Source of the DNA: Paramacrobiotus metropolitanus
Lineage: Eukaryota > Tardigrada > Eutardigrada > Parachela > Macrobiotidae
NCBI RefSeq assembly: GCF_019649055.1
Contig: NW_026570293.1
Span: forward strand, 310,001 to 374,000
Direction: 5' to 3'
DNA length: 64,000 nucleotides
Below the pieces are notes generated by a model, which saw only the letters and a program-made list of their open reading frames with translations, ran no database searches and was not told the origin of the DNA. Of the stretch, positions 32-39,140 are shown piece after piece. Numbering within the stretch: the stretch's first letter is position 1; each line of letters opens with the position of its first letter. Position numbers and translations under genes: made by a program.

Positions 32-1267
32 ATGGACAACAAGCTGTTGAATGTCATACCGGTTGAGCGTGACCGCAGAGACTTCGATGAAGTCCACGAC
101 TATCCGTCCTATATGGCACGGAATCCAGAATTGAAAAAGTGGATGACGCCGATGGACAGGCCACAGGATAAGCAGTTGTTCCCTACAGAGAAAAGATTTC
201 GTGACCCACAGTTCTGGCGTGAAACCCAACAGCAGTGTGTTGATAGCCGGATGTGGTACAAGATGTACAAAAAACCGTCGCATGCTAATACGAATTTTAC
301 TAAGTATGAAATAAATCGGTTTGTAATCTGCGAAGGAATTTTGTGTAGAGTACCTGATCACTCTGGTGCTTGCCCACGGATTTACGTGCCGCACCAATGG
401 CGACAAAAGTTGATAGCCTGCTTTCACGAAATATTAATTCATAAGCAAGCGTATGGCCCGCATGAGAAATTGTATCCGTATTTGGTCAAGCTTTTCTATT
501 GGCCTGACTGCATTATTGAAATTGAGCGTTATGAGAAAAATTGTGATGTATGTCGAAACTCGGTTAATGATCGCCGGCATTTTGAAACTTTAAAACGTAC
601 CGAGCAATTACATGCACAAAAAGCTACAGGAAAACGTAAGGTTACCTTTTCTGTGGATAACCCGGCTCCGGCAGGAGAATTCGAGAATGGTAGCTTTGTC
701 CCAGCTGATGGCATGAAGCCCATCAATATCGGCTCGTGTCCGGTCTCCTATGAAGATAAACAGGCGGAGAAGCAAAGGGAAATTAATTCGCAAACAATTA
801 ATAACTCACCGCAGCAGAAACAATCTGAGTTCGTTTCAAAGGAGTCCAGAGCGATCTACGATGTCTCAACAAATGTTAACATTAACGAGCAGTGGGAAAT
901 CTGGAATGAAATACAGAAGCAAAAAGCGCTGAGAGATTCTGCAGCCGTCAGTTTAGCTCAACCCACTGCCGGAAATGTCGAACCGTCAACAGAAGGTTCG
1001 GGAAGGAGTTCTCCACGGCGTAAAAAGTCTAGTTACAGTCGTAGAATTAAACGTGAATATGCGGAAAGAGAAGCTGCAAGTCAAATGTCGGCTGAAACTG
1101 TGCAGCCAGCCCCCGTTCAGCAGCAGCCAGTGGCTAAAAACTTACCCAAACGGTCCCAGGACGTCCGTGAATCCAGGGATCCCGGCATGTGTGTAAACGA
1201 AAGATGCCATCGAGTTGGCGTACAGGGATGCCCATCTGAAACAGGCACAAGCACAAACGGAAATTGA
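32..1267 (+). CDS. Retroelement ORF1 with integrase-like H2C2 zinc-binding module
   Basis: The frame is open to the window edge (base 2), so the ATG at 32 may not be the true start. Residues about 117-175 look like the N-terminal zinc-binding domain of retroviral-type integrases: a VPHQWR entry, an H-x4-H pair, a FYWP motif and a C-x2-C pair. There is no DDE catalytic core after it. The rest is hydrophilic, rich in Gln, Glu and Lys, with a basic SPRRKKSS-type patch near residue 325. It overlaps the pol frame by about 70 bases in the +1 register. Either this is a +1 frameshift arrangement, or ORF1 is the tail of another copy joined to a 5'-truncated pol; the missing protease favours the second reading. 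No CCHC knuckle is seen, so an identification as gag is not supported. Confidence 0.6.
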   Translation: MDNKLLNVIPVERDRRDFDEVHDYPSYMARNPELKKWMTPMDRPQDKQLFPTEKRFRDPQFWRETQQQCVDSRMWYKMYKKPSHANTNFTKYEINRFVICEGILCRVPDHSGACPRIYVPHQWRQKLIACFHEILIHKQAYGPHEKLYPYLVKLFYWPDCIIEIERYEKNCDVCRNSVNDRRHFETLKRTEQLHAQKATGKRKVTFSVDNPAPAGEFENGSFVPADGMKPINIGSCPVSYEDKQAEKQREINSQTINNSPQQKQSEFVSKESRAIYDVSTNVNINEQWEIWNEIQKQKALRDSAAVSLAQPTAGNVEPSTEGSGRSSPRRKKSSYSRRIKREYAEREAASQMSAETVQPAPVQQQPVAKNLPKRSQDVRESRDPGMCVNERCHRVGVQGCPSETGTSTNGN

Positions 1268-4199
1268 CTCGGTTGAACAGGACATTTACCGGTTCGAGCC
1301 TGAACCTGGTCCTATTGACTGCTTTAAAATGGAGCTTTTTCCGGCTTCACCGGTTATAATTCAGCCCCATTCACAGGGAATTATTCGGGCAACGACGTCA
1401 ATGTCCGATGAGCAGTTTATGGAATTCCAGGATGAGTACCTATACACTCAGCCCTTTCTCTATGAAGGGTGTATCCCTGCAACAAATAAAAATGCGGTAT
1501 TATTGGATGGCGTTTTAACGCTAAATGAGTACGATAATTGCCGAGTCTGTGTTGTAAACGTCTCCGACAAGCCGCTAGTTTTAAATGAAGAAACGAACCT
1601 TGGCGAAGTGGCTCTAGTTGATGCAGTGTACCAGATGGACTCTCCGGAGTTCCAAAAGAATTGTCAGGAAGCAATTGCTGACATTCCCAGTATTGAGGAG
1701 GGTGTTCCGGCACCGGAGAAAATTAACGAATGTGTGGCTATGCAGCTGCCGCCACCCGCTGTTAGTGTGGTTGATCCTGAAACAGAAGAAACCTTCGCGA
1801 AAATCAAAGTCGGAGACATTTGTCCGAGCAAGGAGGAATTAAAAGCTATCTTCTATCAGGCAAAAGCTGTACTTCCGACTAAAGCGCGCCCCGTGGGATG
1901 CTGTACCATTTATGAGCACTCCGTGGATACAGGTACCAGTTTGCCGGTCAGAACTCCTCCGTACCGCACGTCATTTGAAGATCGTAAATGGCTTCAATCT
2001 AAAACACAGGAAATGATTAAAGATGGTATCATTGAGCCAACAAATTCGGGATGGGGAAGCCCGATTTGTATCGTAAAAAAGAAAGATAAATCTCGGCGTT
2101 TAACCGTGGATTTTCGCAAACTTAACGAAAGATTAATGGGCAGCAGTTACCCGCTTCCCAGAGTCGATGATATCTTAAATGCGTTGGATAAAGCTACGGT
2201 ATTCAGTAAAATCGATTTAAAAAGTGGCTTCTGGCAAATAAAAATAAAACCAGAAAACCGGTGTAAGACAACAATGGTCGGAGAAGAATTTACGTTCCAA
2301 TATAAAGTCTTACCTTTTGGGATGAAGGACGCGCCTTCCGCTTTTCAGCGCGCCATGGACTTGACGCTTGCGAACATGAAATGGAGAAACGTATTAGTTT
2401 TTATTGATGACATTATTGTTTTCAGTAAAAACCTGGCAGATCATATGCGGGACTTGCAGGAGCTTTTTCTGAGGCTCCAGGAATGTGGCTGGACGATTAA
2501 TCCTGAAAAAACAGAATTATTCGTCAACTCAATTACCTTTTTGGGTCTTACTGTCGATCAATTCGGTATCAGCACGGATCCAGAGAAGATCCAGGCAGTT
2601 AAGGAGTTCGGCCCTATAAAAGACAAGAAAGACATCCTCAGATTTTTGGGCATGGTTGGCTACTATCGCCAATTTATTAAGAACTTTCAAGAGATTGCCG
2701 AGCCGCTTCAAAAACCCATTCCTAAAAAAGTTACCTTTGAATGGGGAACCGATCAGTGCCGTGCTGTGGAGCAATTAAAGGAAGCGTTGGTGACGGCGCC
2801 GGTCTTGGTTCGCTATGATTCAGAGGCTCTGTCGAGGGTGGTCGTGGATGCCAGCACTATCGCCGTCGGCGCAGTGCTTATGCAGTGTCCTCGGGAAAAA
2901 CCTACAGATGTGCTGACGAACTGGAGACCTATCGCGTATTTAAGCCGCAAGTTGACTGAGACACAGAAAAGGCTATATTTTCCTACAGAGCTTGAGGCTT
3001 ACGCGGTTATTTGTGCCTTAAAAAAGTGGAAGCACTATTTGTCTGATTACCAGTTCGAAGTACAAACGGATCATCAAGCGTTAGTATTTTTAAATAATAT
3101 GCGCGATGCAGCTGGCCGTCTCGGGCGCTGGGCGCTGTATATTCAGCAGTTTAACACTAAACCTGTTCACATACCTGGCAAAGAGAACGTTATTGCTGAC
3201 GCTTTAAGCAGAAACCCGGGAGAACAACCAGAACCTGACTCTGACGACTCGAATATTGAGTTTGATTATCGGCAAACTTACCCTTTTGCTGGTGATGCAG
3301 CGATGATCGAATGTTGCTTCGCGGTCCTGGAAAGAGATTACGTGGATGTCCGCTCTGAAATGATGCTGGCAGAAGTAAAGGCTGTTAAGGAAGAGGATAT
3401 GCAGGCCTTTGACGCGGATAAAGTTCAAAAGTTGATTACAGATGACAAAGCCTCGCATTGGGCTGAGGAACAGTCTCGTGATGCCCGCATTGTCAGATGG
3501 CGATTGCTCCTAGAAAATAAAAAGGAAAAAATGTCAGAGCATGAGAAATTACATCTAAACAAATTCGTGGTAAAACAAGGTGTTGTATACTACAAACTTG
3601 AATTAAACCGGAAGATTTATTATTGCATGTATGTGCCCGTGCATTGGCGGTTACAATTCCTTCAGGATAATCATGACTCACCATTAGCGGCACACTTGGG
3701 GGTTTTAGCCACCTATAAGCGGATGTACAAGTATTTTTATTGGCCTCGTATGTTTGAGTCTGTCAAAAATTACTGTGCCTCTTGCCCGGCGTGCCTTGCA
3801 CAAAATCCTTTGGCTACGGCACCGGCCGGCGCTCTCCAGTCAAATCCGACGGTTCCTCCTCGGTTAGTTTGGGCAATTGACGTCGCCCCGGCCCTTCCAA
3901 CGACGGAATCTGAAAACAAAAACATAATTATTGCAGTAGATTACGGAAGCAAATACATAGTGGCTGAAGCAGTTGAGAGAAATGACGCCGCCACATTGGC
4001 GTTGTTCTTTTATCGGCGTATACTTACGGTCTTTGGCATGCCAGTACACATTACCTCAGACCGCGGTAGTAATTTTATGTCAGAAATGTTTCGAGAGCTT
4101 CTAGCTCTCGCTGGTGTCGCTCATGCACCGACGGCGTCGGGCCACCAGCAGGGTAACGAACTTGTTGAAAAACGCGTAGGGGAAATCAAAAAGCATTAG
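1215..4199 (+). CDS. pol: Gypsy-type pol: reverse transcriptase, RNase H, integrase (frameshifted)
   Basis: Copies element RNA into DNA and inserts it in the genome. The frame opens after a stop at 1194-1196 and has no ATG; 1215 is a TTG. The N-terminal 200 residues look like the protease-to-RT linker. The reverse transcriptase shows VDFRKLN, IDLKSGFWQI, PFGMKDAPSAFQ and the catalytic FIDD box near residue 397. RNase H follows with an Asp near VVVDAS and the TELEAYAV segment near 592. Integrase has an H-x-H/C-x2-C zinc domain (about 810-865) and the Asp, Asp, Glu core (AIDVAP, TSDRGSNF, GNELVEK, about 888, 949 and 982). Just after the catalytic Glu the frame hits TAG at 4197; the remaining integrase continues in another frame. 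This looks like a one-base loss, so the copy is probably inactive. Confidence 0.92.
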   Translation: MAYRDAHLKQAQAQTEIDSVEQDIYRFEPEPGPIDCFKMELFPASPVIIQPHSQGIIRATTSMSDEQFMEFQDEYLYTQPFLYEGCIPATNKNAVLLDGVLTLNEYDNCRVCVVNVSDKPLVLNEETNLGEVALVDAVYQMDSPEFQKNCQEAIADIPSIEEGVPAPEKINECVAMQLPPPAVSVVDPETEETFAKIKVGDICPSKEELKAIFYQAKAVLPTKARPVGCCTIYEHSVDTGTSLPVRTPPYRTSFEDRKWLQSKTQEMIKDGIIEPTNSGWGSPICIVKKKDKSRRLTVDFRKLNERLMGSSYPLPRVDDILNALDKATVFSKIDLKSGFWQIKIKPENRCKTTMVGEEFTFQYKVLPFGMKDAPSAFQRAMDLTLANMKWRNVLVFIDDIIVFSKNLADHMRDLQELFLRLQECGWTINPEKTELFVNSITFLGLTVDQFGISTDPEKIQAVKEFGPIKDKKDILRFLGMVGYYRQFIKNFQEIAEPLQKPIPKKVTFEWGTDQCRAVEQLKEALVTAPVLVRYDSEALSRVVVDASTIAVGAVLMQCPREKPTDVLTNWRPIAYLSRKLTETQKRLYFPTELEAYAVICALKKWKHYLSDYQFEVQTDHQALVFLNNMRDAAGRLGRWALYIQQFNTKPVHIPGKENVIADALSRNPGEQPEPDSDDSNIEFDYRQTYPFAGDAAMIECCFAVLERDYVDVRSEMMLAEVKAVKEEDMQAFDADKVQKLITDDKASHWAEEQSRDARIVRWRLLLENKKEKMSEHEKLHLNKFVVKQGVVYYKLELNRKIYYCMYVPVHWRLQFLQDNHDSPLAAHLGVLATYKRMYKYFYWPRMFESVKNYCASCPACLAQNPLATAPAGALQSNPTVPPRLVWAIDVAPALPTTESENKNIIIAVDYGSKYIVAEAVERNDAATLALFFYRRILTVFGMPVHITSDRGSNFMSEMFRELLALAGVAHAPTASGHQQGNELVEKRVGEIKKH

Positions 4200-4876
4200 C
4201 GAAGTATGTTAATGAACAGCAGAGTGACTGGGATATATTCCTTCCAGCACTCTGTGCGGCCTTTAACAGTAAAGTAGTCGAGCGTACCGGCCGTACACCA
4301 TTTTTTATGATGCATGGCACCGAGATGCGCTTACCTGTGAATAACTTCCTGCCATTTGAAGAGGATTTCGTGATTCCCGCTCACGTATATGTACAGCAGA
4401 TGCAGCGTGGCCGTGGAGAGGCCTTGGATTTGGTGAACGCAGAGGAATTTCGGCATAAACTAAAAGACAAAATAAGATATGATGCCAATATATCTCACAA
4501 CTCATGTAAAGCCGGAGATCAGGTTTTGGTGTACGTATTACACCGGAAAGTGGGGAAAAATCCATCACTTATGCCCCGTTGGACTGCGGGATGGGAGATC
4601 GTTCGCCAGTCCGGGCCAGTCCACTACGTAGTAAAGAGTAATAGGCGTGGGAATGTCAAAACTGACACTGTGCATGTCAGTCGCCTAAAGCCGTATAACT
4701 TCCGTGATGTTGATACTATTCTACAAGATGAGCAGTCACCGAAATCGCTTGATTGTGTGGAGAAGGAATGCCCTGATGAACTGGTTGAGGCGCCCGCGCC
4801 GCCGCCTGTGATTCCGTCCGTTGACTCAGCATCGTCGCGTCTTGATGCTGAGTACGCTGAGTATCTGGATATTTAG
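4193..4876 (+). pseudogene. Integrase C-terminal part, displaced to a second frame
   Basis: This frame continues the integrase core past the frameshift: the usual tryptophan and 'FNSxVxERTGRTPFFMMHG' type segment, then a basic C-terminal region with a GDQVLVYV-W-GWEIV pattern typical of the gypsy integrase SH3-like domain (about 4520-4700), then VHVSRLKPY. It stops at TAG 4874-4876. In the same frame, after one more stop, the tail resumes with TRSGRVVKPVERL, the usual ending of gypsy integrases. The ATG at 4307 is therefore internal and not a real start. Confidence 0.85.
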
Positions 4877-5622: not shown

Positions 5623-5963
5623 AATGGCCGAGCGGCCGTGTAAATGTGTTTACTTATTTTATCTTTAAATTTTAAGCATTGAAATTTTATGCCTTAATCT
5701 ACTAACTGTCTGGAAAATTCCCAAGATTACTTGTACGTACAGATTGAGTGTGCGTAGTCGCCATTGGACAGTCCGCGGTGACGTAGTAGCGTTCGTTGCT
5801 CTTTCTGCATATCAGCTGCGCAGGAAAGCTGTTTTTAGCTAGGCCGCAAATGAAATTAACACCTGCAAAGATCAGTGTCAGTCATTAATTTGCTTTCAGT
5901 CTCGTCCGAGTTTGCTCTTTCTCCACACTGAGTTCGCGGCTAAAATTACTGTGTATCGCTACA
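5623..5963. other. Spacer between retroelement and first orphan gene
   Basis: AT-rich at first, then mixed. No ORF, tRNA or inverted repeat was recognised. It should contain the promoter and 5' leader of the 5964 gene; a TATA box could not be assigned. Confidence 0.4.
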
Positions 5964-6797
5964 ATGCATCGCCCGAAAGTGTCAGCGCATCCTTCTTATC
6001 AGCATGAGGATACCACGAGTTCCTCGGAGGATTCGGTACAAGTCGAAGCGGACATTCCGCCGCCAGAGAATCCTGATCCTCACGTTGGATGGCCAGAGCC
6101 GACATTTGAATGGTCGACGCGTATGGTGGATTGTCGCGTTCCACCATCTGCGGATGATTATGCCCGTGGAGCGCGGGGCTATATTCCTCCATCAGGTCTG
6201 CAACGTTCCCATTACAGTCCAGATGCTGATTACGTAGAGCTGCACCCGGATACTCGCCTGCGCTTCCGCGGCAAAATCTTTCACAATGGTTCGCAGATGA
6301 TGGTGGACAAATATAACCGCTTTGTAAACACTCTGGATCTGTCAAAGGACGCCCATTATGCTTTACTTCGTTACCTGCGCGTGGACTTCCGACAAGGATG
6401 GCTTATTGGGCAGATTGTTTGCGAACTTCGGCGGAATTTCGGCATCAATGTTGTGCGGAACCCAGTGGAGTTTCTCACTGCTCTGAATTATCATCCGGGA
6501 GAGACTGGTGATCGTGGAGCTGTCGTCACACTCGTAGACGTCTATAATCAGCATATTACGGATGATGTCTCGATGATTGATGAAGACTTACGTCTGGAAG
6601 CGGAGCAGCGTTACTATCAGCGCTTGGATGCCGTGCAACAACGCGCGCCGGGACAACAACGGCAGGGATTGAAAGTTCGTTGGTCGTTGGCGGAAGGACA
6701 GGAGAAGCGTGTCCCGGGTAAACTGGATGCTTCGATTGCTAAGCGCCATCGTCCGCGCCGTGATGACGACGATGATAACATGGGCGCTGCAGTCTAG
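5964..6797 (+). CDS. Orphan protein of the 'NGT' family (277 aa)
   Basis: I do not recognise this protein. It is a single open frame from an ATG to TAG, with GC-rich third codon positions unlike its AT-rich surroundings, which supports coding. Residues 1-60 are acidic and Pro/Ser-rich. Residues about 101-155 hold a motif (F-x-N-G-S, then Y-N-R-x-V-x-T-x2-L, then L-x-R-Y-L, then a hydrophobic end) shared with the genes at 7384 and 13899. A charged helical part follows (EDLRLEAEQRYYQRLDAVQQR). The C-terminus is strongly basic and then runs into DDDDDN. Basic and acidic tails suggest a nucleic-acid or chromatin partner, but that is inference. No signal peptide or membrane segment is seen. Confidence 0.7.
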   Translation: MHRPKVSAHPSYQHEDTTSSSEDSVQVEADIPPPENPDPHVGWPEPTFEWSTRMVDCRVPPSADDYARGARGYIPPSGLQRSHYSPDADYVELHPDTRLRFRGKIFHNGSQMMVDKYNRFVNTLDLSKDAHYALLRYLRVDFRQGWLIGQIVCELRRNFGINVVRNPVEFLTALNYHPGETGDRGAVVTLVDVYNQHITDDVSMIDEDLRLEAEQRYYQRLDAVQQRAPGQQRQGLKVRWSLAEGQEKRVPGKLDASIAKRHRPRRDDDDDNMGAAV

Positions 6798-7383: not shown

Positions 7384-8193
7384 ATGGATTTAGTCAACGG
7401 CACTTTCGGCTATAAAAACTCTTTTGGCCGCATTGTTTCGGATGAATTTGCGGAGAAACTACGCCGTGAGTACTTTTCGGAATATCCCTTGTCGAGTCGT
7501 GTTGTATTGTTTGATGTTGTATTACAGAGGACTGCTTTTTGTCCCTTTTCAAAAGCTGAACATGTGTCTGTTGTTTCAATAGTCGAAGAACCTGGAAATT
7601 ACGAAAAGTTAATTGACTTTGAGGAGCGTATCATCCGTGCGGACTCAACGGAATTGTACTACGTTGAAGTTGGGATCTGGCCGGGACCTGATACGCTGAT
7701 TTGCCGTGCAGCTGCGGATCGCATTCGTGCGAGCATGAATTTACCGCCGCTGCCACCGAGACCGGAATCTCCACGCACTCGTCGTCTCCGCTGGAAGGCT
7801 GAAAAGGCCGCAGAGGCTGAAGAGAAAAAGCGTTGGGAGGAGGAACTCTGCTGCGTGGACTGCGAGAATTTCGGCCCAGGTTTTTGTGGCCGCATTCGCT
7901 GGTCTGAACCCAAAGTTAAGCAGCCAGCTGAGCCACCTGTTGAAGCGGACGAACCAATCCCGAATATTTGGGGATCTGGCAATCTGGAGGATTGGCAGGA
8001 GCCTGCTTCCGATCTTGCTGACTGGTGGGAGCAGAACAAGCTGGACATTCCGGATCCAGTCAAGGTCTTGCATGTGGATATGTTGTGGGAGGACGAAGAT
8101 TTCGGCCCTGATCGGAAACCGAAGAAGAAGCGTAAGCACATCGTTGTGCAGCGTCTCTCCTTGCGCGGGATTCGCTTTCCCTACTGGATGTGA
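7384..8193 (+). CDS. Orphan protein of the 'NGT' family (269 aa)
   Basis: Unrecognised protein in one exon, ATG to TGA. The shared motif is at the very N-terminus (residues 3-48): V-N-G-T, F-G-R-x-V-S, LRREY, then VVLFDVV. After it comes a second globular part with a hydrophobic YYVEVGIWPGPDTLICRAAADRI segment. Next is a Pro-rich linker, a charged helix (about 130-158), a Cys cluster (C-C-x2-C-x9-C near 158-170), an acidic Trp-rich region (WGS, W, W) and a KPKKKRKH nuclear-localisation-like stretch near residue 245. Codon use is GC-rich and matches the 5964 gene. An acceptor-like AG lies six bases upstream of the ATG. A nuclear role is possible. The longer minus-strand ORF over this gene is a shadow. 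Confidence 0.7.
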   Translation: MDLVNGTFGYKNSFGRIVSDEFAEKLRREYFSEYPLSSRVVLFDVVLQRTAFCPFSKAEHVSVVSIVEEPGNYEKLIDFEERIIRADSTELYYVEVGIWPGPDTLICRAAADRIRASMNLPPLPPRPESPRTRRLRWKAEKAAEAEEKKRWEEELCCVDCENFGPGFCGRIRWSEPKVKQPAEPPVEADEPIPNIWGSGNLEDWQEPASDLADWWEQNKLDIPDPVKVLHVDMLWEDEDFGPDRKPKKKRKHIVVQRLSLRGIRFPYWM

Positions 8194-9668: not shown

Positions 9669-9765
9669 ACCCCGCTGGTATAGTAGTGCCTTCCGTTGCT
9701 TCGTCATTGGAGGTCGGAGGTTCCAGTCTACATAAAAATGCAATTTTGTAAATATCCTTCTTTTT
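9669..9765 (+). ncRNA. tRNA-like unit 1
   Basis: A box TGGTATAGTAG at 9676-9686 is an exact consensus match. The B box at 9719-9729 (GGTTCCAGTCT) has two mismatches. A T-run is at 9761-9765, preceded by ATATCCTTC. Stems pair poorly. Confidence 0.5.
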
Positions 9766-9894
9766 GGTTTTTATTTTGTGAGCCATTATATTTTTATTCG
9801 TGGGACTCAATATGAGGAATATTAGGTGAATCGCTGTTGAGAAGCGTCAAAATCAACACTGTCATCAGTGTTATTAGTACTATTTTTACCGACG

Positions 9895-10004
9895 ACTTGT
9901 GTGGTGCAGTGGTCTAGTCAGGAGATTAATACTGGACGATCCTCCGCTAAGTCTTGGGTTCTAATCCTAAAAATTTAAAAGCATTTTCATAAAACTTCCT
10001 TTTT
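9895..10004 (+). ncRNA. tRNA-like unit 2
   Basis: A box TGGTGCAGTGG at 9902-9912 is exact. B box GGTTCTAATCC at 9957-9967 has one mismatch. The 55-base spacing resembles a tRNA with a long variable arm. The T-run is at 10000-10004 after AAAACTTCC. Most similar to unit 6. Confidence 0.6.
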
Positions 10005-10131
10005 ATGTTCGCATTTTTGCGCCCTGATGTACTTATATATTCCGTGTCATGGCGCTAATCTCATGTTAGTTTTCAATGAGCGACGCACAGTTCTAAAGCT
10101 CTTGTCGTTTGGATTCTGTGTTTATACGTGT

Positions 10132-10238
10132 TATATCGTAGTGTAGTGGTTCAGAGTCGGTGCTGCACACACCATCTTGTTATGGCTCTGTGTTAAAAAC
10201 TCTTATTTATGTGTGCCATTTTCATAGACCTTCTTTTT
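10132..10238 (+). ncRNA. tRNA-like unit 3
   Basis: A box TAGTGTAGTGG at 10139-10149 is exact. The B box at 10184-10194 is badly decayed. The T-run at 10234-10238 follows ATAGACCTTC, keeping the trailer consensus. Confidence 0.45.
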
Positions 10239-10339
10239 GGGTTTTATGTTGCTGCAATACCGTTGAATATGCATTGCTGTTGACCACTGTAATTTTATGA
10301 TCCCTTTCGATGAGTGAATTCAAAAGTTTCGTTGTAGAT

Positions 10340-10453
10340 AATTCCGTAGTGTAGTAGGAAGATCTGTTGAACTACAGCAACGGGGAAACTAAAAGGTTTC
10401 GGGTTCAAGTTCCTTACAACTAATTTGCATTTTCTGAGAAACTTACTTTTTTT
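10340..10453 (+). ncRNA. tRNA-like unit 4
   Basis: A box TAGTGTAGTAG at 10347-10357 is exact. B box GGTTCAAGTTC at 10402-10412 has one mismatch. Seven Ts at 10447-10453 follow GAAACTTAC. Body and upstream flank resemble unit 7. Confidence 0.6.
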
Positions 10454-10593
10454 CGCTCTATATTTTTGTTTTCGCCCTGGGAAAAGTATTTGCGATAGTC
10501 CCTTGAATTGCGGAATTAATTTCGAAAAGCGGTGCTTAAACGCGCGTATTGAAGTGACACTGCGTTTTGCCGTTTGTTCGTCTGCAATCGGCT

Positions 10594-10708
10594 GACTTCG
10601 TAGTTCAGTGGCTATGAATGATGGCCATTCGCTTCATGTACTACCTCCTTTAACAGTCCCGGTTCGAATCTCAGGTTGCATGTTGCATGATCAAAAAACC
10701 CTCTTTTT
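10594..10708 (+). ncRNA. tRNA-like unit 5
   Basis: A box TAGTTCAGTGG at 10601-10611 is exact. B box GGTTCGAATCT at 10661-10671 has one terminal mismatch; spacing is 60 bases. T-run at 10704-10708 after AAAAAACCCTC. Confidence 0.6.
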
Positions 10709-10879
10709 CTACTCTACATATTTGCATTTTTATGGGACGAAGTTATGCCAAAGAGATCCCGAATTTTGCGATTAAACTGGAGCAGTAACTCACTAATGCT
10801 TCAATGCTTTATTGCAGTCTGATTAAATATACACGACATGGCGCTTCCGGTGTTAAATTTATCTGGCTTTAGCGTAGAG

Positions 10880-10987
10880 CACTTTGTGGCGCAGTGGCTA
10901 GACTGAGAATCCATACCGACCCGCTTCTTACAAGTCTAGAGTTCAAATCCCTAAAAGTTAATCTGTCTAATTTAAAACCTTCTTTTT
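10880..10987 (+). ncRNA. tRNA-like unit 6
   Basis: A box TGGCGCAGTGG (10887-10897) and B box AGTTCAAATCC (10940-10950) both fit the consensus. The T arm pairs in four of five positions. T-run 10983-10987 follows TTAAAACCTTC. This is one of the two best-preserved units. Confidence 0.65.
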
Positions 10988-11088
10988 GGGTTTTATATTT
11001 TTGTGTTAATGTACAGTGTCATGTTGGTTTGGAGATGGGTAGTTTTACGGTCATTTCCGTTGAGTGAATTTAAAGTTTATCGTTGTAG

Positions 11089-11199
11089 GATACTGTAGCG
11101 TAGTGCTCTGCACCGTTGAATCATAACCACGGGTGCAATGAAGGTCCCGGGTTCGAAACCCGTTGAAATTAATTTGCATTTTCTAAACTTTACTTTTTT
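11089..11199 (+). ncRNA. tRNA-like unit 7
   Basis: A box TAGCGTAGTGC (11096-11106) has one mismatch at its last base. B box GGTTCGAAACC (11150-11160) has one mismatch. The T arm pairs in four of five positions. A further hairpin GCACC/GGGTGC lies between the boxes. Six Ts at 11194-11199 follow AAACTTTAC. Confidence 0.6.
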
Positions 11200-11382
11200 G
11201 TTTTTAAATTTTTGTTGGTATCCTTGTGAACATGTTGCCGTACACGGAGTGAATTTTGCGATCATAATGGTGGTGAAATTTTAAAACTTATCACCTGCTT
11301 TACTGGGAATCTCTATTATATCGTGGATTTTCGTAGTACAGCGCCTCCAGTGATTGCCAATTTAAAAGTAAAATGTGGTATA

Positions 11383-11494
11383 GCCATGCTAGCGTATGGG
11401 CAAGAGCAGGATGTAGTTGTCCACCTAGATGCAAGGTTCAATCCTGCGTAAATACAAATTTTGCAACGGTTAGAGTTTTCCTTTCATCTTTTTT
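11383..11494 (+). ncRNA. tRNA-like unit 8 (most decayed)
   Basis: A box TAGCGTATGGG at 11390-11400 has one mismatch. The B box GGTTCAATCC near 11435 is one base short. T-runs are at 11476-11479 and 11489-11494. This is the right end of the array. Confidence 0.45.
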
Positions 11495-11499
11495 ATTTT

Positions 11500-11895
11500 T
11501 TGCTAGTGATTCCTGTAAGTTCATATCTATATTGGAATATTAAAATTATTTTTGGCATGTCATTTGCGGTTTTACACAGCTATATTGCCAACTATAGTTG
11601 CGCTATATTCGAATTCACTGTAGTTACACTGCGCGTTACTACTCCATCGATTTTATTGCAGTTATCAAAATGCTACGTAAAGCTAAAATTAATCTTGGAT
11701 TAAAACAAATCTGTCCGACCAGCAAAGTTAATGACTGTATGAGAATCTGTACGAATGAGAATCACAGTTAAAACAGCGATGAGATTAATTCAATGAGATT
11801 AAAAGAATAGACGGAAGAAACAAAAGTCGGCTGAATTTCATAGCACGATTATCAGACAGCCGCTGGAAAAACTATGCGCGTCACAACATTGCTGT
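11500..11895. other. AT-rich spacer right of the tRNA-like array
   Basis: Low-complexity AT-rich sequence with no credible gene. It should contain the 3' end of the minus-strand ORF group. Confidence 0.35.
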
Positions 11896-12432
11896 TTAGT
11901 CCAAATCCAACTTCTCTTTGGCGCTTTTCAAGTTAGATAGACGCTGTTCCAGCGCTTCACGGATATACGCCATGTGTTTGGCATCCAGCGTCGCTCATGC
12001 CTTCAGCGTGTTTACCAGCGCCTTGCAGTTGTCCATAATGTCTTTTTCGCGCTCAACCTGTTGCAGCAGCTTATCGATTGCATCCGGTTTAGTAGCGGCT
12101 GCGTCAGCTGGCTTTTCATCCTTTTCCTTGGATTTCTTGTTGTCTTTTCCCTTCTGCGCATTTTTCTCTGGGGCGATATATTTCGGACGGCCGCCCGTGG
12201 CTTTCAGCTGGGTGAGAGTGATAATTGGCTCTCTTTCAATCCGCGCGTCCTTGCTAGCCCGGATTACCAAATTCTTGTCCGTCGTATTATTCTTTGATGG
12301 CTCAATTGCATCCAGACGCTCCATTACGCCGTCCACGACTAAATCGACGTCTTCTCCCACGTGGCCGAAACTGCAATCCGTAACACGTTGTTCGATTTCT
12401 TTCCCGTTGATGGTGACTTTCATAGTGCCCAT
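11896..12432 (-). CDS. Orphan coiled-coil protein with an in-frame TGA
   Basis: The likely start is the ATG at 12432, because TTATTTACAG just upstream is a good splice or trans-splice acceptor; a longer upstream frame looks non-coding. The first 100 residues contain MKVTINGKEIEQR and a GRPKY segment. A lysine-rich linker (KNAQKGKDNKKSKEKDEK) follows, then a helix (DAIDKLLQQVEREKDIMDNCKALVNTL) that stops at TGA 11995-11997. The frame runs on for 32 codons of similar helical character (MAYIREALEQRLSNLKSAKEKL) to TAA at 11896-11898. This is either a short protein with a decayed tail or a readthrough product. No family is recognised. It is the last of three adjacent minus-strand ORFs, and its GC-rich codons resemble the plus-strand orphans. 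Confidence 0.5.
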
Positions 12433-12566
12433 TTTCACATCTGTAAATAAGTTGGGTGATTGTAGTGCACGTGCGGGTAACAAACCGATAAAGGCGTAAA
12501 TCGCTAGGCAAATGATAGAATTATGGCCCCTTTTTGTCACTAAAAGTTTTGTCATCAATTATCTGC

Positions 12567-13286
12567 CTAAATATTACTATGAATTACGTTTAAACACTCA
12601 CTGATTGTTTGAGCCAGAGTATCGCAAAGGCAGCATCCGCGGATGCTTCTCAGCCACAGGTCTATGCAGCTACCGACAAACAAATTTCCGTGGACTACGA
12701 TGACGTGCTTCTCCTTGACCAGTCGGCGCAGGCCTCGTTCCAGCCAGTAATCCCGATCTTCGAGCCGTACGTCGTAGGTGCAGGCCCAATGTTGGATCTC
12801 GGCTCGTGACATCGCATATCGGCCGTGATACAGAACAGCACGAATCATCCGACGAAGTTTTCCGTATGTGTCAATTACCCTTACTTCGGGATCGCGGCTC
12901 TTATGCACTTCGTCAGCCACTTCGAGAACAAAGCGCCCGTCGCGAGACATCTTCTTCAGCAGGATTCCGGCGTTGATTGCGTCGCCGAGGAAGAAATCCA
13001 CTCGGTCAGCTGTGAAATCGTCGTGCATGTCAATGATAAACTGTTTGACGGAAGCCATATCCACGTAGAAACCACAAATATCCGCCTCCAAAATGCAGGC
13101 GTGGGCTGCAGTATGTATCGCCAGTTGTCGACGGCTTTGCGTGGTTTCCTTGGCCGTCAAAGGTTCCGCCATGGCAAACTGGACCGATTCGCGAGTTCGC
13201 TCTTTCCAATATCGAGCATCTTCAATCGCATCCGTTTCGGGCGATGGTAAGGGCTCTCCAGCTGGTCCCATAGGCTGTGCGGACAT
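12567..13286 (-). CDS. Orphan protein with possible winged-helix domain (239 aa)
   Basis: Unrecognised. Single open frame from ATG at 13286 to the stop at 12567. Residues 40-110 are mostly helical (AIHTAAHACILEADICGF, then VKQFIIDMHDDF). Residues about 160-200 look like a winged helix-turn-helix: SRAEIQHWACTYDV, then DYWLERGLRRLVKEKHVIVV followed by a short strand HGNLFV. This suggests DNA binding, but it is an inference from pattern only. A GTAGCTGC after HGNLFVG could be a splice donor, in which case the last 35 residues would be intronic. It sits in a same-strand group with the ORFs at 11896 and 13340, spaced by 135 and 54 bases, so a polycistronic transcript is possible. Confidence 0.6.
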   Translation of the reverse strand: MSAQPMGPAGEPLPSPETDAIEDARYWKERTRESVQFAMAEPLTAKETTQSRRQLAIHTAAHACILEADICGFYVDMASVKQFIIDMHDDFTADRVDFFLGDAINAGILLKKMSRDGRFVLEVADEVHKSRDPEVRVIDTYGKLRRMIRAVLYHGRYAMSRAEIQHWACTYDVRLEDRDYWLERGLRRLVKEKHVIVVHGNLFVGSCIDLWLRSIRGCCLCDTLAQTISECLNVIHSNI

Positions 13287-13898: not shown

Positions 13899-15461
13899 AT
13901 GTCACCTCCTGCAAAGAAGCCAACTGCGCGGAAGACCGCATCGCGTACACCGCGCCCGAGTCGTGCAACTGCGGGATTGAGTTTTGGTTATTCTCCTGAC
14001 AGCGATGAAGCCCGTTCTTCATCGCGCGCCACTCGATCTCGAGTTTCTCGCCGTTCTTCCGCCCAACCAGTGTTTGCTGCGCAATCCCCGGGACGATCTG
14101 GACGTGCGAGTGCAGCAGTGGTTCAGCAGCCTTCAACGAGTCGGGCAGGCGCGGTCGTGGATGCTTTACAGCGCCGTTATGACAAACAGAGGCGACGCAC
14201 AATCCTTCGCCGCAATGCTGCTGTGGTTCGCCGTCATGCAGGCCGAGGATCATTCCCTGCCAATCCTGACGTTGAGATTCGTCAGCCATCACCGAAGAAA
14301 TTGCAGACACAAGCGGAGAGACAGTTGGGTACGCCGGATCTTACAGAAGAAGAGCCGTCGTCATCTGAAACCCCGTCGGTGCGAGCAAAGCGAGGTATTT
14401 TTCATATTACGTTCTTGTGGTTTCTTTTGCTAAATAGCAACGATAGCATTAATGCGGTTCTCGGTCATTTCTTCTCAGATTTATCGGCCTAAGTTTCTGG
14501 TTAATGTAGTGGTGAATCTGTTTGGTATATTTATTTGAATTAACGGATAGTTGGTCTGTGCTGTTATTTCGTATTGCTATTGCGTATCAGTGATACTGTT
14601 TAACGGGGATTAATTGGTGCTTCTTGTTTTGAACCAGATGAAGAGCATCTGCGTCAAGGTGGCATCCTCTATGTTCCGTATAACCCGGATGCACCGCGGC
14701 CGGTCTTCAAGACCAAGCAGACGGCTCGCAAACGAGCGCATTCTGGCGTATTTCCAAGAATGGCTGTGGCGCGCAAGAATGGTGAGGCTCTGGCTATCTC
14801 GCAGGCCTATTTTTCTGGCCTTAATCGTTTCCATCCTCGTTATTCTGATTTGTATTTGTCGCATTTTCTATTCCCGAATGGAACGTTGATTCATCGCTTT
14901 GATCGTTGTGTTGTTACTTCTCGGCTACCTTCACCAATTGCACTAGAGCTTCGACGGCAGTATCTTTATTTAAATCCTGTTTTTGTTGCCTTGTTTCAAG
15001 AAATCACCAAGCGTCAGAAGGCGGATGCGGTTGCGCGTCAAGCGATTGTTGATGTTGCTGCTGTGGAAAATGAGCAACCGCAGCCTTCCACTTCAGCTGC
15101 CGGCCCGTATTATTTCCGCACCCGTGGCGAAAAGCGCAAGTACAAGGAGGTTTCGCCATCCTCGTCTTCGGCGCCAAGCGAAGTTTCGGTCTCGGATGAT
15201 GGTGAAGATCGTGAGGATCCTTCGGCCGTGTTATCCCCTGAGAATGCTAATGTCGAAGCTGACGAGAATGCGGACATGGTAGTTGATTGTGAGGGCAACG
15301 ATGGATCTGACTTGGAGAAGACGGATGTAGATCCGTTGCCGTCTCTGCAGCCGGCTGTCCCAGCTGTGCCACCTGTTGCTGCTGTCGCCCGTGAGGACTC
15401 GCCAGAAATTGCGGAACCAGTAGCTTACGGTCAACAGCAGCCACACTCTGATGAATTGTGA
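13899..15461 (+). CDS. Orphan 'NGT' family protein, two exons (439 aa)
   Basis: Exon 1 is 13899-14394 and exon 2 is 14638-15461. The donor is G|GTATTT and the acceptor TTTTGAACCAG|AT. Joining restores one frame across a 243-bp intron, which explains two apparently separate ORFs. Residues 1-165 are very basic and Ser/Arg-rich, like a nuclear or RNA-binding tail. Residues about 242-290 carry the shared motif (F-P-N-G-T, F-D-R-x-V-x-T, LRRQYL, FVALFQEI). A KRKYKE stretch and a long acidic tail (EDREDP, VEADENADM) follow. Charge layout resembles the 5964 protein. It is divergent from the minus-strand group, with about 310 bases between the nearest starts, so a shared promoter region is possible. 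No function can be assigned. Confidence 0.65.
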
Positions 15462-17161: not shown

Positions 17162-18166
17162 GCTTTATGCCGTCTCCTGTACATACAATCACCAGTTAAC
17201 TAAAACGGCACAGTATAAGTAATTCATAGTTCGCCTTCCTGGATCCTTGGACCTCCGCCCTGCTCAACCCGTGGACTTCCGGATGCCTCTTCGCCAAGGA
17301 TTCCACACACTAACTCTCTGGGAATCGCAGCGTACAGTCACATTGGGCATCGGATGGACGCGTGGATTGTGCGGTGGATCGGGATCAGGAGCGATGGAAG
17401 TGCACAATCGCACTGGGATGTTGCGGGATGGATTGTTTATATTGGCACGGCCAAGCTTCGTTCGTGGGGGTGACGTGTGGGAATAGGATCACACGCCGGA
17501 GTACGTACGGATGCTGACTGTCCGCCTTCCACCTGCAACACAAACGGATAATCTAGTCAATCTCTTCTGTGATTTGCTGTTCTCTTTTACTAGCGATGTA
17601 TGTGATGTCATAACGCGAAGTCTATATAAGTTCTTGTGATGCCTAATATCGGAATCAGTAGTCTGAGTTTCACTTCTGAGACTGCTTCCTAATGACAATT
17701 TCCTAGCGTTGTGAACTGTGGTGTGAATTGGATAAAGAGACAGCAATACTTGTTCCTTCTGATGTACATGATCGTTCCCGGATTATTGCATAGAATACAG
17801 GTTTGCTCGTGACACAATCGTCCTAGCTCTTGCCAATCCTCGCAGGACTCGCGACCGGAAGTTGTGATTAGCTCGTTCCTGAGGGATTCCTGAATTCTTG
17901 TGTTCCTGGATCGTTCGTCATTTCTCTACCATAGTTCTTCTGTTACAGTTTGAGAGTACGAGTGCCTACCGACTGACATTTACAGGCGTGGAAGAGTAAA
18001 GATAGTTCATGGAGCCTTAATCGGCGTGAACGCTTATACACGACAAAGTGTTGGGCTGCGCGAAAGCGTTTTTTTTTTGCGCGAATAATTCTTGAACATC
18101 TATCTATAAATGAATTTGGTAGTATGTTCCGGCACACTTTTCTTAACCTTTATTTTATTTGGGCAG
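17162..18166. other. Intergenic region, possible upstream exons of the membrane-protein gene
   Basis: No credible ORF. The last bases (TTATTTTATTTGGGCAG) are a splice acceptor for the exon at 18167, so 5' exons of that gene must lie here or within the island; none could be identified. Confidence 0.3.
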
Positions 18167-24615: not shown

Positions 24616-25135
24616 TGTCAAGGCGGGCTTATGATTCAGCCCTTCTGTCATTGGCTGGTTTTGGGTTTTTTCCTGTCTGGGCATTCGCATGCTTTTGACG
24701 GCCTGCAACACAGCTGTGCTGGCTGCAGGATCCGTTTTTGGCCAGTTGGTTTTTGGCTGGCGCGCAAGGCGCGGTGTGTGTGTCAGATTTCGGCATTAAA
24801 GCCTTCATCCGGGTTTGCTTTGTTCCGCTGTCGATGGAGGATGCGCGCTTAGCCAGCGCCATCTGATAAGTCAGAGGCTGCCATAAAGACGGCTGTCCGT
24901 GGGTATCTCCGCGAGGAGGGCGGCCAGATGAAAGAACTTCCTGTTGAGGAAATTCTGAAAAATGGCGACGGCGCGGAATCGAACCGCTGGCTATTGAGTG
25001 TGTGATCCACGTAGCACAGCCACTGTGCCATCGCCGTTGTTGGCTGAGATCAAGATATTTGTGCTTGAGCTTGAGACAACCAGGTAGGCGGCGGATGGAG
25101 CGGCTGTCCTGAGGGCAGAGCCTTCTGCTCTGACA
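24616..25135 (-). mobile_element. TIR-type element copy 1 with tRNA-like core
   Basis: Begins TGTCA and ends TGACA; TTAC on both sides may be a target duplication. It consists of a 250-bp arm (24616-24865) and a tRNA-containing core (24870-25135). The same core is at 31681-31953, where the homologous arm lies on the other side in opposite orientation (32107-32346). The complete parent element was therefore probably arm, core, unique part, inverted arm. This copy lacks the right half. No transposase is seen. Confidence 0.65.
24964..25035 (-). ncRNA. 72-nt tRNA-like gene inside element copy 1
   Basis: Read on the minus strand, A box TGGCACAGTGG and B box GGTTCGATTCC are exact. The seven-base acceptor stem GGCGATG pairs with the 3' end (one G-U), and the length is exactly that of a tRNA. 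ATTTTT follows as a Pol III terminator. The anticodon arm does not fold convincingly, so this is probably a tRNA-derived SINE-type promoter and not a functional tRNA. Confidence 0.6.
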
Positions 25136-25170
25136 TTACTTTAAATATTTTTAATTTATTGAGGCGCGCA

Positions 25171-31505: not shown

Positions 31506-32346
31506 GAAATAATTTGAAATGAAACATAAAATAGTATCCTGTGTACAGTAACATTCAAACAAACGCAACACAAGCCGATAACAAACATAACAAGCGTAAC
31601 ACAAGTAACATGATAATCATAACAAGCATAACCTAACATACATAAAACCTTTTTGCACGAACGGCTCGTCATAGAGATATCAGAGGCTGCCATTAAAACG
31701 GCTGTCCGTGGGTATCTCAGCGAAGGGAGGGCGGCCAGATGAAGTCCGAAAGAATTTCCTGTTGAGGAAATTCTGAAAAATGGCGACGGAGCGGAATCGA
31801 ACCGCTGGCTACCGGGTGTGTGATCCACGTAGCACAGCCACTGTGCCATCGCCGTTGTTGGCTGAGATCAAGATATTTGTGCTTGAGCTTGAGCCAACCA
31901 GGTAGACGGCGGATGGGGCGGCTGTCCTGAGTGCAGAGCATTCTGCTCTGACACCCCTTTGCAGGCTTCGCTACGTCCTCGGAGCGAAATTTCGCAGGAA
32001 TCGGAGGATCCGCACTCCACGCGTTCTGGGGAGGCGGGGCCATACTGCGCTTCTGCAGTAGGCAGTCTGGTTCCCGTCCGAGCCGACGCTGCTTGTCTGC
32101 TACCATATCAGACGGCGCTGGCTAAGCGCGCATCCTCCATCGACAGCGGAACAAAAGCAAACCCGGATGAAGGCTTTAATGCCGAAATCTGAACACACAC
32201 CGCGCTTGCGCGCAAGCCAAAAGCCAACTGGCCTCTTTAGGCAGCGCAGCTGCGTACAGAGCCGTCAAAATGCATGAAAATGCCCAGACAGAAAAAATCA
32301 AAGCCAACCAATGACAGAAGAGCGGAATCATAAGCACGCCCTGACA
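31506..32346 (-). mobile_element. TIR-type element copy 2 with tRNA-like core
   Basis: Contains the core shared with 24870-25135 (here 31681-31953), a unique GC-rich part (31954-32106) and an arm (32107-32346) that is the inverted counterpart of 24616-24865 and ends in TGACA. The left part, 31506-31672, is the inverted copy of 26257-26325 plus about 26700-26800. A long minus-strand ORF over the core and unique part is not convincing as a gene. Confidence 0.6.
31782..31853 (-). ncRNA. 72-nt tRNA-like gene inside element copy 2
   Basis: Same 72-nt structure as at 24964-25035, with exact A and B boxes and a paired acceptor stem; the copies differ at a handful of positions, mainly in the anticodon-to-variable region. 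An ATTTTT terminator follows. Confidence 0.6.
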
Positions 32347-32638
32347 TCCCTGTACTGTCTAACACTGAGCTCCTGCGAAGTGCAGGTAAATGGCGTGATG
32401 CGCCGTAAAAACAACAGTGGATACAGGGACCGGTACGGTCCCTGTGCTATGTCTAATAGACTGTACTACCGGGTGGCTCGGGTCCAGTTCGGTCGGCTAA
32501 CATGGTCCGGTATGGGGAATAGTTCGGTCAGGTTTGGTCCGCCTCGGTCCCAATTTCGTCGGTTCGGATCAGGTTCGGCTCAGGAATGGTTCTGCGCCGG
32601 TTTGGCCCGGGTTCGATCGGTCTGGTTCTGATTCGGAA
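32347..32638. other. Degenerate GGTTCGGTC-like repeats
   Basis: From about 32440 the sequence repeats variants of GGTCCGG/GGTTCGG (for example TCGGGTCCAGTTCGGTCGGC). This is a decayed short tandem repeat with no gene. Confidence 0.4.
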
Positions 32639-33356
32639 GTTGTATGTGGTAATGCTGCTCATACGCATAATTTTAGACTTCTGAGCTTATACTGGATTTT
32701 GGAAACACTTATGGGACACAAATATAATATGCCAACGAAGATAAGTGCTTTTCTTCACCCCACATCCTGAGCAGAGCCCCCAATACACACTACCCATCCT
32801 GCAACACCGAGCTTTAACTTTGGGAACCCCTTTCGAGTACGGCCAGCGTTTAATTATTACAAAGCAACAACAAATATTTTCAGCTTAACACTTCGTTAAC
32901 CAGCGTGATTTCACACCGGAGTTGGCCTTATTAATTCAGTAACTAATTTCAAAAAAATATTTTTACAGCAATTTTTGGGCTGTGTGATTGAAACGTCTAG
33001 TTTGCTTTGCTGCTGTTTTCGGCACAGTCGGTGCAGCCGGAAGCCCAGGATAGAAATGGTGGAACTCACCATCTTTTTGGGACATACACGTTCAAATGGT
33101 CACACCGTTCAGCTGCGTGAATGTATGATATCGAAAACACCAGGCCATGTACTGGATACAGTGGCCAACTGATCGATTTTCAGCGACATATGAGGCTCAG
33201 ATCGCCTACAAAAAATGAGGCGCATTGGGAAATTTGGGAGGTTGCCCAATGATGCCGCTGTTCGACTGAAAGTTGCACGTGGAAAACGACCAGAGCAGCT
33301 AACAATCAGGCGCGCGCATACCGCTAGGGCAATAAAAGGCACTTTAATTAAAGTTT
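32639..33356 (+). repeat. 715-bp direct repeat, copy 1
   Basis: Nearly identical to 38428-39140 over its whole length, with scattered substitutions and small indels. Both copies contain the same 65-codon ORF (MGCVIETSSLLC..., 32975-33172 here) and AATAAA near the right end (33331). The two copies flank 5.1 kb that includes the serine protease gene. Confidence 0.8.
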
Positions 33357-38083: not shown

Positions 38084-38427
38084 TACAGACTTGTCATTTG
38101 TAGCTGACAATCTAGCACACTTTTCACTATCTTGTATTGCACCTGACCGTGAATGTTAATTTTGTTGTAAATATTCCTAAAAATTGGAAATTCTTACCTC
38201 AACTGTTTATAATGCCGCGTAGATAAAACTGAATTTTGCGGACAAAAAACCCGGTTTTGATACGCCGCCGATGTTTCTGTTCATGACAATCGTCGTCCTT
38301 ATTTACTGGTTTGCGCGACGGCTTAGAATGTGGGAGATATCAGCACACTACATCCCGTCGCACTCAAAGCGTCGAAAATATCATAGCGTGCAATATTAAT
38401 CGTCAGAGTTTGGCATATGAACTGAAA

Positions 38428-39140
38428 GTTGGATGTGGTAATGCTGCTCATACGCATAATTTTAGACTTCTGAGCTTATACTGGATTTTGAAAACACTTA
38501 TGGGACACAAATATAATATGCCAACGAAGATAAGTGCTTTTCTTCACCCCACAGCAGAGCCCCCAATACACACTAGCCTATCCTGCAACGCCGAGCTTTA
38601 ACTTTGGAAACCCCTTTCGAGTACGGCCAGCATTTAATTATTACAAAGCAACAACAAATATCTTCAGTTTAACACTTCGTTGACTAGCGTGATTTCACAC
38701 CGGAGTTGGCCTTATTAATTCAGTAACTAATTTCAAAAAAATATTTTTACAGCAATTTTTGGGCTGTGTGATTGAAACGTCTAGTTTGCTTTGCTGCTGT
38801 TTTCGGCACAGTCGGTGCAGCCGGAAGCCCAGGATAGAAATGGTGGAACTCACCATCTTTTTGGGACATACACGTTCAAATGGTCACACCGTTCAGCTGC
38901 GTGAATGTATGATATCGAAAACACCAGGCCATGTATTGGATACTGTGGCCAACTGATCAATTTTCAGCGACATATGAGGCTCAGATCGCCTACAAAAAAT
39001 GAGGCGCATTGGGAAATTTGGGAAGTTGCCCAATGATGCCGCTGTTCAACTAAAAGTTATACGTGGAAAACGACTAGAACAGCTAACAATCAGGCGCGCG
39101 CATACCGCTAGGGCAATAAAAGGCACTCTGATTAAAGGTT
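38428..39140 (+). repeat. 715-bp direct repeat, copy 2
   Basis: Second copy of 32639-33356. The 65-codon ORF at 38759-38956 encodes the same peptide. A following frame (38999-39196) is open here but broken in copy 1. The AATAAA near the right end is retained (39115). Confidence 0.8.

What the first reader, a model, noticed from the sequence alone, without database searches (positions are those of the whole stretch)
9669..11494. Tandem array of eight diverged tRNA-like genes between orphan ORFs
Eight plus-strand units in 1.8 kb each have a tRNA-type A box and, at tRNA-like spacing, a B box. Six A boxes fit the consensus exactly although the sequence between boxes has diverged widely. Retention of promoter boxes against a diverged body suggests the units are, or recently were, transcribed by Pol III. 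Poor acceptor-stem pairing argues against ordinary tRNAs. I know of no described animal element with such an array.
Basis: partly seen in the sequence, partly recalled or inferred. Interest (0 to 1): 0.88.

Follow-up and report, generated by a model that had tools for sequence, protein, structure and literature searches.

The report
Retrotransposon carrying eight Pol III genes
Inside a giant retrotransposon sits a row of eight small RNA genes built like tRNA genes but not tRNAs, and several of them have stayed nearly unchanged between copies while the DNA around them drifted, which suggests that this mobile element makes its own set of small non-coding RNAs.

Summary
Eight plus-strand units at 9669-11494 have a tRNA-type A box, a B box (exact in some units only) and a T-run. 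Four units tested genome-wide (u1, u5, u6, u8) each matched 40 places, the scoring cap. In 16 of 20 other copies all eight units stand in the same order. u8 is the most conserved 80-nt window of 9.8 kb compared: about 1% difference among the other copies, against 12-23% for spacers. u1, u5 and u6 are also in the most conserved 5%; u2, u3, u4 and u7 are conserved mainly within copy groups. T4 runs are nearly absent from the bodies, and T5 lies 41-45 nt after the B box in 132 of 139 cases (u8: 53-54). A subfamily about 66-73% identical keeps this architecture. The units are not tRNAs: acceptor stems do not pair, and ARAGORN and Rfam find none. Best reading: selected Pol III non-coding RNA genes of a giant retroelement. 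Transcription is untested; function is inferred.

The parts
9669..9765 (+). u1: Pol III type-2 unit, A box TGGTATAGTAG at 9676, B-like box GGTTCCAGTC at 9719, T5 at 9761
   Evidence: A box exact in 20 of 20 copies, B box exact in 1 of 20; 3rd most conserved 80-nt window; genome search 90-97% at 39 other places
9895..10004 (+). u2: A box 9902, B-like box 9957, T5 10000; window copy differs from the common allele
   Evidence: 0.021 mean difference within the 13-copy group g1
10132..10238 (+). u3: A box 10139, T5 10234; no recognisable B box in this copy
   Evidence: A box exact in 18 of 19 copies, B box exact in 13 of 19
10340..10453 (+). u4: A box 10347, B-like box 10402, T7 10447; 6-bp arm with 8-nt loop at 10364-10383
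10594..10708 (+). u5: exact A box 10601 and B box 10662, T5 10704
   Evidence: A box exact in 20 of 21 copies, B box in 2 of 21
10828..10860 (+). copy of the LTR 3' end plus PBS, upstream of u6
   Evidence: 24 of 27 columns identical to the true LTR/PBS junction, BLAST E 0.004, 0 of 500 shuffles; well conserved in copies
10880..10987 (+). u6: exact A box 10887 and B box 10941, T5 10983
   Evidence: A box exact in 21 of 21 copies, B box in 9 of 21; 4th most conserved window
11089..11199 (+). u7: near A box 11096, exact B box 11151, T6 11194; arm 11113-11132
11369..11494 (+). u8: most conserved unit; near A box TAGCGTATGGG 11390 (alternative TGGTATAGCCA 11376), B box 11436, T6 11489
   Evidence: top window of 7,205; 94-98% at 39 other places
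17471..18045 (+). 3' LTR, 575 bp; the 5' LTR is L029:3740-4314, outside the window; element spans about 24.3 kb
   Evidence: 98.96% identity, 6 mismatches; flanking AAGT on both sides
1215..4199 (+). pol: RT, RNase H, integrase zinc-binding and core domains (Ty3/gypsy type)
   Evidence: Pfam; relatives at 27-42% identity in the 120 listed
4307..4876 (+). integrase C-terminal part
   Evidence: weak Pfam matches below cut-off, Integrase_p58_C and SH3_Tf2-1
5964..6797 (+). accessory ORF A, 277 aa, no Pfam family
   Evidence: codon-position bias in 18 copies
7384..8193 (+). accessory ORF B, 269 aa, upstream neighbour of the array
   Evidence: codon-position bias, 8 copies usable
11995..12558 (-). 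accessory ORF C, 187 aa, antisense, its 3' end faces the array
   Evidence: codon-position bias in 19 copies; no homologue in the protein database
12567..13286 (-). accessory ORF D, 239 aa, antisense
   Evidence: codon-position bias in 19 copies; AlphaFold model uninformative
13899..14492 (+). accessory ORF E, 197 aa
   Evidence: codon-position bias in 18 copies
14760..15461 (+). accessory ORF F, 233 aa (probably continues upstream to about 14640)
   Evidence: codon-position bias in 19 copies; conserved 14682-14761

Best explanation
The array is a cluster of eight short non-coding RNA genes with type-2 (tRNA-like) Pol III promoters, encoded by a 24.3-kb Ty3/gypsy-type LTR retrotransposon and maintained by selection through its rounds of transposition. 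Each gene has an A box, a B box 43-64 nt on and a T5 terminator about 42 nt after that, predicting eight different RNAs of roughly 100-130 nt made from the integrated copy independently of the LTR promoter. The products are not tRNAs. SHOWN: location in the element, unit number and order, constraint on A boxes and bodies, T4 depletion, fixed T5 position, survival of the architecture in a diverged subfamily. INFERRED: that Pol III transcribes them (about 0.8 given the sequence), and that the RNAs act in trans, each with its own partner or target, as the Pol III RNAs of large DNA viruses do, for instance by binding or diverting host RNA-silencing or RNA-binding factors (about 0.4).
For: Element: LTRs and flanking AAGT, pol, PBS complementary to host tRNA-Lys(CTT) over 10 gene-encoded nt plus CCA. 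16 of 20 other copies have u1-u8 in order. Mean pairwise difference among the 20 other copies: u8 .010, u1 .046, u6 .060, u7 .063, u5 .065, against spacers .124-.232 and flanks .178-.208; within group g1 u2 .021 and u4 .022 against spacers .137-.215. u8 stays near .03 whatever the spacer distance. Window 11370-11449 ranks first of 7,205. Genome searches without locus selection: u8 94-98% at 39 other places, u1 90-97% at 39, spacer 11220-11320 only 76-84% at 24. T4 inside bodies in 1 of 159 unit copies, 0.10 against 11.9 per kb in spacers and flanks; 115 distinct bodies hold 1, shuffles 23.8 on average, minimum 13 of 200. T5 at 41-45 nt in 132 of 139 cases for u1-u7, at 53-54 in 20 of 20 for u8. 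In the diverged loci L072 and L073, nine units found by relaxed patterns have A-B 46-57, T5 at +41 to +44 and no T4 inside. An arm in u4/u7 keeps pairing through C-G, U-G and U-A.
Against: No expression data. Measured against the window copy, u2, u3, u4 and u7 are not conserved above the element's average (percentiles .69.96.31.32). Exact B boxes are missing in many copies. No excess fold stability (mean z from -1.01 to +0.71). For the window copy alone, absence of T4 is not significant (P 0.14). In the diverged subfamily u5 and u8 are only 72-74% identical to the window's, no better than the neighbourhood, while one u4 is 83-86%. 5 of 15 A-box-like sites there (673, 1094 and 1348 in L072; 853 and 1529 in L073) have no B-like box by the pattern. 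Copies and units are related, so counts are not independent. No antisense target was found inside the element.
Confidence: 0.6

Rival explanations
1. Boundary or insulator: TFIIIC and Pol III bound at the row of boxes separate two converging Pol II units (ORFs A/B on plus, ORFs C/D on minus). The RNAs are by-products.
For: The array lies exactly between plus ORF B and the 3' end of minus ORF C; tRNA genes and B boxes can act as boundaries (established knowledge; listings).
Against: Would predict B boxes as the most constrained part. Instead A box and body are best kept and exact B boxes are lost in many copies (u5 2 of 21, u2 0 of 19). Separate constraint on eight different bodies is not explained.
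Confidence: 0.15
2. Replication aid: the units serve reverse transcription, as primers, second priming sites or packaged cofactors.
For: A copy of the LTR end plus PBS stands upstream of u6 and is well kept in the other copies, and upstream of the u8-like unit in the diverged subfamily (L072, read).
Against: The real PBS fits host tRNA-Lys(CTT). No unit matches the PBS complement over more than 7 nt. No 3' acceptor structure. The motif is significant only at u6 (0 of 500 shuffles), marginal at u3 (p 0.04), and not at the other six units (p 0.25-0.91).
Confidence: 0.1
3. Captured multimer of a small non-autonomous element with a tRNA-like promoter (SINE, or TRIMp3/Helenus-like) with no function now.
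For: Shared A box, B box and 3' tail with diverged bodies between units; an LTR-end/PBS copy next to a unit; tandem arrays of a Helenus family are reported (PMC10886601, passages). Plausible as the ORIGIN of the array.
Against: A relic would drift like its spacers; it does not. Units were not seen dispersed outside the element: by inspection, 38 of 40 u8 places lie within 1 kb of a u5 or u6 match, and the other two were fetched and hold arrays.
Confidence: 0.08
4. Local gene conversion or recent spread homogenised the bodies; there is no selection.
For: u2, u3 and u4 come in two allele classes that are shared among copies, which shows exchange; copies are multicopy and related.
Against: Conversion would have to stop at the A box and soon after the B box in several units and leave spacers of 100 bp diverged. 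u8 differs equally little between near and far copies.
Confidence: 0.07

Closest known systems
Helenus (TRIMp3), Kojima 2024, PMC10886601 (passages seen)
   Same: LTR retroelement carrying a tRNA-derived A box/B box sequence; the tRNA-like part shows no complementarity to the PBS; tandem arrays reported for one fish family
   Different: Helenus is short and non-autonomous, with ONE tRNA-like sequence inside each LTR. Here an autonomous 24-kb Ty3/gypsy-type element carries EIGHT different units internally, outside the LTRs
TMERs of murine gammaherpesvirus 68 (PMC8223928 passages; that there are eight is recalled)
   Same: A cluster of tRNA-like Pol III genes with gene-internal A and B boxes, several different RNAs in one element
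   Different: DNA virus; there a tRNA-like 5' part is followed by miRNA hairpins. Here no cloverleaf, no excess fold stability and a short AT-rich tail
Burro and other giant gypsy-like LTR elements (PMC6431247 passages)
   Same: Giant gypsy-type element, internal region over 20 kb, extra ORFs
   Different: No tRNA or Pol III feature is mentioned in that review (0 occurrences of 'trna' and 'pol iii')
Retand/Ogre-type plant elements with antisense ORFs (PMC11963269, listing only)
   Same: Long region between pol and 3' LTR, antisense ORF
   Different: No Pol III array known to me; not tested

Membership tests
tRNA gene | cloverleaf with paired acceptor stem | tested here: not met
   1-5 of 7 acceptor pairs in the seven units tested; ARAGORN 0 in array and in 20 loci; Rfam none
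tRNA gene | A and B boxes | tested here: met
   enriched over shuffles; B boxes exact only in part of the units
tRNA gene | similarity of the body to host tRNAs | tested here: inconclusive
   10 of 24 unit/copy comparisons slightly exceed the best of 40 shuffles against 37 host tRNAs, 14 do not; shared boxes alone could do this
Type-2 Pol III gene (any product) | A box, B box, T-run terminator, no T4 inside | tested here: met
Type-2 Pol III gene (any product) | transcription by Pol III | not testable with these tools
   no RNA or ChIP data
Ty3/gypsy-type LTR retrotransposon | two LTRs, target duplication, PBS | tested here: met
Ty3/gypsy-type LTR retrotransposon | domain order protease, RT, RNase H, integrase | tested here: met
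   protease in the L029 ORF, RT-RNase H-integrase in window 1215-4199; no phylogeny made
Helenus / TRIMp3 | short non-autonomous element with tRNA-like sequence in the LTR | tested here: not met
   element has pol and the units are internal; BLAST of LTR plus leader against the array finds only the 27-column LTR-end/PBS match
SINE | dispersed single copies | tested here: not met
TMER-like viral RNA | miRNA hairpins behind the tRNA-like part | not tested
   tails of about 40 nt were only read; the fold test covered bodies, spacers and flanks

The most novel reading that the evidence does not exclude
A retrotransposon that encodes its own battery of eight sequence-specific Pol III non-coding RNAs, a counterpart in retroelements of the Pol III RNA clusters of DNA viruses, made from the integrated copy and used against or through host RNA pathways.
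Probability: 0.4. Interest if true: 0.92.

Novelty: new variant of a known kind. Interest (0 to 1): 0.8.

Why it matters
LTR retrotransposons are thought of as one Pol II transcript coding for gag and pol. A giant element that also keeps eight Pol III RNA genes in fixed order would mean that retroelements, like large DNA viruses, can carry a non-coding RNA arsenal. Because bodies, boxes and terminators are all kept, each RNA can be looked for directly in small-RNA data and tested one by one. The nine literature searches that ran (an open-licence full-text library only) showed no such array in an autonomous LTR element; the nearest was Helenus.

Tried and rejected
Rejected: ordinary tRNA genes. 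Self-encoded primer: no unit matches the PBS complement over more than 7 nt. Antisense to the element's own sequence: longest matches 9-12 nt, within the shuffles. Stable folds: no excess (a first attempt, timed out with no output). RNAalifold per unit: little covariation because bodies hardly vary; the u4/u7 arm is the exception (40 arms from the alignment, 4 found by a pattern that favours the arm). Helenus membership: not met. AlphaFold of ORFs D and A: mean pLDDT 46 and 38, not used further. Copy number by pol: the search did not complete.

Choices that affect counts: the 20 loci L009-L028 are the 20 best other matches to u5, so u5 is favoured; checked with genome-wide searches of u8, u6, u1 and of spacers. 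Spacer 11510-11650 found only itself, but that search skips common words, and the same stretch does align in the fetched copies, so it is not used as proof. L001-L008 are short duplicates of fetched loci and were left out.

Full report
What was checked. The window is G000:C73:310001-374000 of an unnamed 169.8-Mb genome. Six exact A boxes and four exact B boxes in 1.84 kb far exceed shuffled sequence (0.85 and 0.35; 0 and 1 of 1000 shuffles). ARAGORN and Rfam see no tRNA there.

Where it lies. Twenty other places that match u5 match the window colinearly over most of 5.3-15.8 kb at about 72-85% identity, a few of them broken. Upstream of the window L029 holds a 575-bp repeat of window 17471-18045 with 6 mismatches, flanked by AAGT on both sides. 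These are LTRs, and the element spans 24,306 bp. The PBS after the 5' LTR fits the host tRNA-Lys(CTT) over 10 gene-encoded bases plus the added CCA. A long gag-like ORF with protease lies in L029; RT, RNase H and integrase lie at 1215-4199. ORFs A-F show few changes at codon positions 1 and 2 (0.07-0.15) and many at position 3 (0.31-0.38), so they are real genes under selection, two of them antisense (C, D); B rests on 8 usable copies and G on one. None of the seven accessory ORFs A-G matches Pfam; C has no relative in the protein database (the others were not searched there). The array sits between plus ORF B and the 3' end of minus ORF C.

Conservation. In an alignment of 21 copies the units stand out. 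Among the 20 other copies the mean pairwise difference is .010 for u8.046 u1.060 u6.063 u7.065 u5.111 u3.111 u4.141 u2, against .124-.232 in six spacers and .178-.208 in two flanks. Within the 13 copies of group g1, u2 and u4 drop to .021 and .022 while spacers stay at .137-.215. u8 does not grow more different as spacers do. In a scan of 7,205 80-nt windows over 9.8 kb, measured against the window copy, u8 ranks first, u1 third, u6 fourth, u5 seventh and the end of u4 eighth; second is 14682-14761, fifth 13944-14023, sixth 5732-5811. By the same measure u2, u3, u4 and u7 are ordinary (percentiles .69.96.31.32), because the window copy carries divergent alleles there. Searches of the whole genome that do not depend on my choice of copies agree: u8 94-98% at 39 other places, u1 90-97% at 39, u6 with leader 87-94% at 39, u5 74-89% at 39, but the u7-u8 spacer only 76-84% at 24. 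Lists are capped at 40, so copy number is a lower bound.

Order. Sixteen of 20 other copies hold u1 to u8 in order; one lacks two units, two lack one, and one has u2 twice and no u4.

Pol III signature. Constraint begins at the A box: difference per site falls from .113 just upstream to .045 and .011 inside (u1, u5-u8). A boxes are exact in 20 of 20 (u1), 17 of 19 (u2), 18 of 19 (u3), 7 of 20 (u4), 20 of 21 (u5), 21 of 21 (u6), 0 of 20 (u7) and 0 of 20 (u8) copies; B boxes in 1 of 20, 0 of 19, 13 of 19, 18 of 20, 2 of 21, 9 of 21, 17 of 20 and 20 of 20. T4 runs occur in 1 of 159 unit copies; 115 distinct bodies hold 1 where shuffles give 23.8, though for the window copy alone the absence is not significant (P 0.14). 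The first T5 lies 41-45 nt after the B box in 132 of 139 cases for u1-u7 and at 53-54 in 20 of 20 for u8. Between units three anchors are shared, the A box, the B box and a tail that ends in an ACCTTCTTTTT-like stretch, while bodies differ. Two loci of a subfamily about 66-73% identical to the window repeat the architecture: nine units found with relaxed patterns have A-B 46-57, T5 at +41 to +44 and no T4 inside; five further A-box-like sites have no B box by the pattern.

What they are not. Acceptor stems do not pair. No fold is more stable than shuffles. Similarity to 37 host tRNAs is at most slight (10 of 24 comparisons above the best of 40 shuffles). A 6-bp arm with an 8-nt loop in u4 and u7 keeps pairing through C-G (15), U-G (13) and U-A (14), with 2 C-A among 44; four of the 44 were found by a pattern that favours the arm. 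This is the only covariation seen.

Origin. Upstream of u6 stands a 27-column copy of the LTR end plus PBS (24 identical, E 0.004), and L072 has a similar stretch before its u8-like unit (read). This suggests that the ancestral unit came from a small LTR element with a tRNA-like promoter, or from a reverse-transcription accident, before it was multiplied. Other units give no significant match (u3 p 0.04, six others 0.25-0.91).

How it most likely works. Shown: a selected, ordered set of eight units with a complete type-2 Pol III layout inside a recently moved retrotransposon (LTRs 1% apart). Inferred: Pol III makes eight RNAs of about 100-130 nt from each intact copy. Because every unit keeps its own body and not only the promoter, the RNAs themselves should matter, most simply as trans-acting RNAs with different partners. 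The position between convergent genes leaves boundary activity as the main rival, but B boxes are kept less well than bodies.

Literature. From PMC10886601, PMC8223928 and PMC6431247 I saw passages; from the others only search listings. The nine searches that ran showed no autonomous LTR element with an internal array of Pol III units. That MHV68 has eight TMERs and that B boxes can act as boundaries is recalled.

Noticed in passing
window 14682-14761: Second most conserved 80-nt window of the element (0.042); reads as coding in the frame of ORF F behind a splice-acceptor-like stretch, so E and F may be one spliced gene.
   Followed up: partly
window 5732-5811: Conserved stretch (0.085) with no long ORF, between pol and ORF A; function unknown.
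   Followed up: no
window 32-1267: A weak integrase zinc-binding (H2C2) match (E 0.00056, below cut-off) lies upstream of RT, in addition to the usual one in pol.
   Followed up: no
window 31782-31855 (-), repeats 24930-25142 and 31748-31960: The only ARAGORN tRNA of the window, tRNA-Val(CAC), lies in a 213-bp direct repeat with a second copy, so it may be a tRNA-derived SINE.
   Followed up: no
window 32637-33092 and 38426-38876: Two direct-repeat blocks (300 and 128 nt, 97-98% identical) 5.8 kb apart, possibly the ends of another LTR element.
   Followed up: no
L069: tRNA-Lys-like gene with an insertion in the anticodon arm; ARAGORN gives no clear anticodon.
   Followed up: no
window 10600-10672 (u5): CTACCTC in 21 of 21 copies and ACTACCTC in 18 of 21, also in L072 and L073; complements the let-7 seed (recalled), but also pairs with GTAGT of the A box, and chance is not excluded.
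   Followed up: partly
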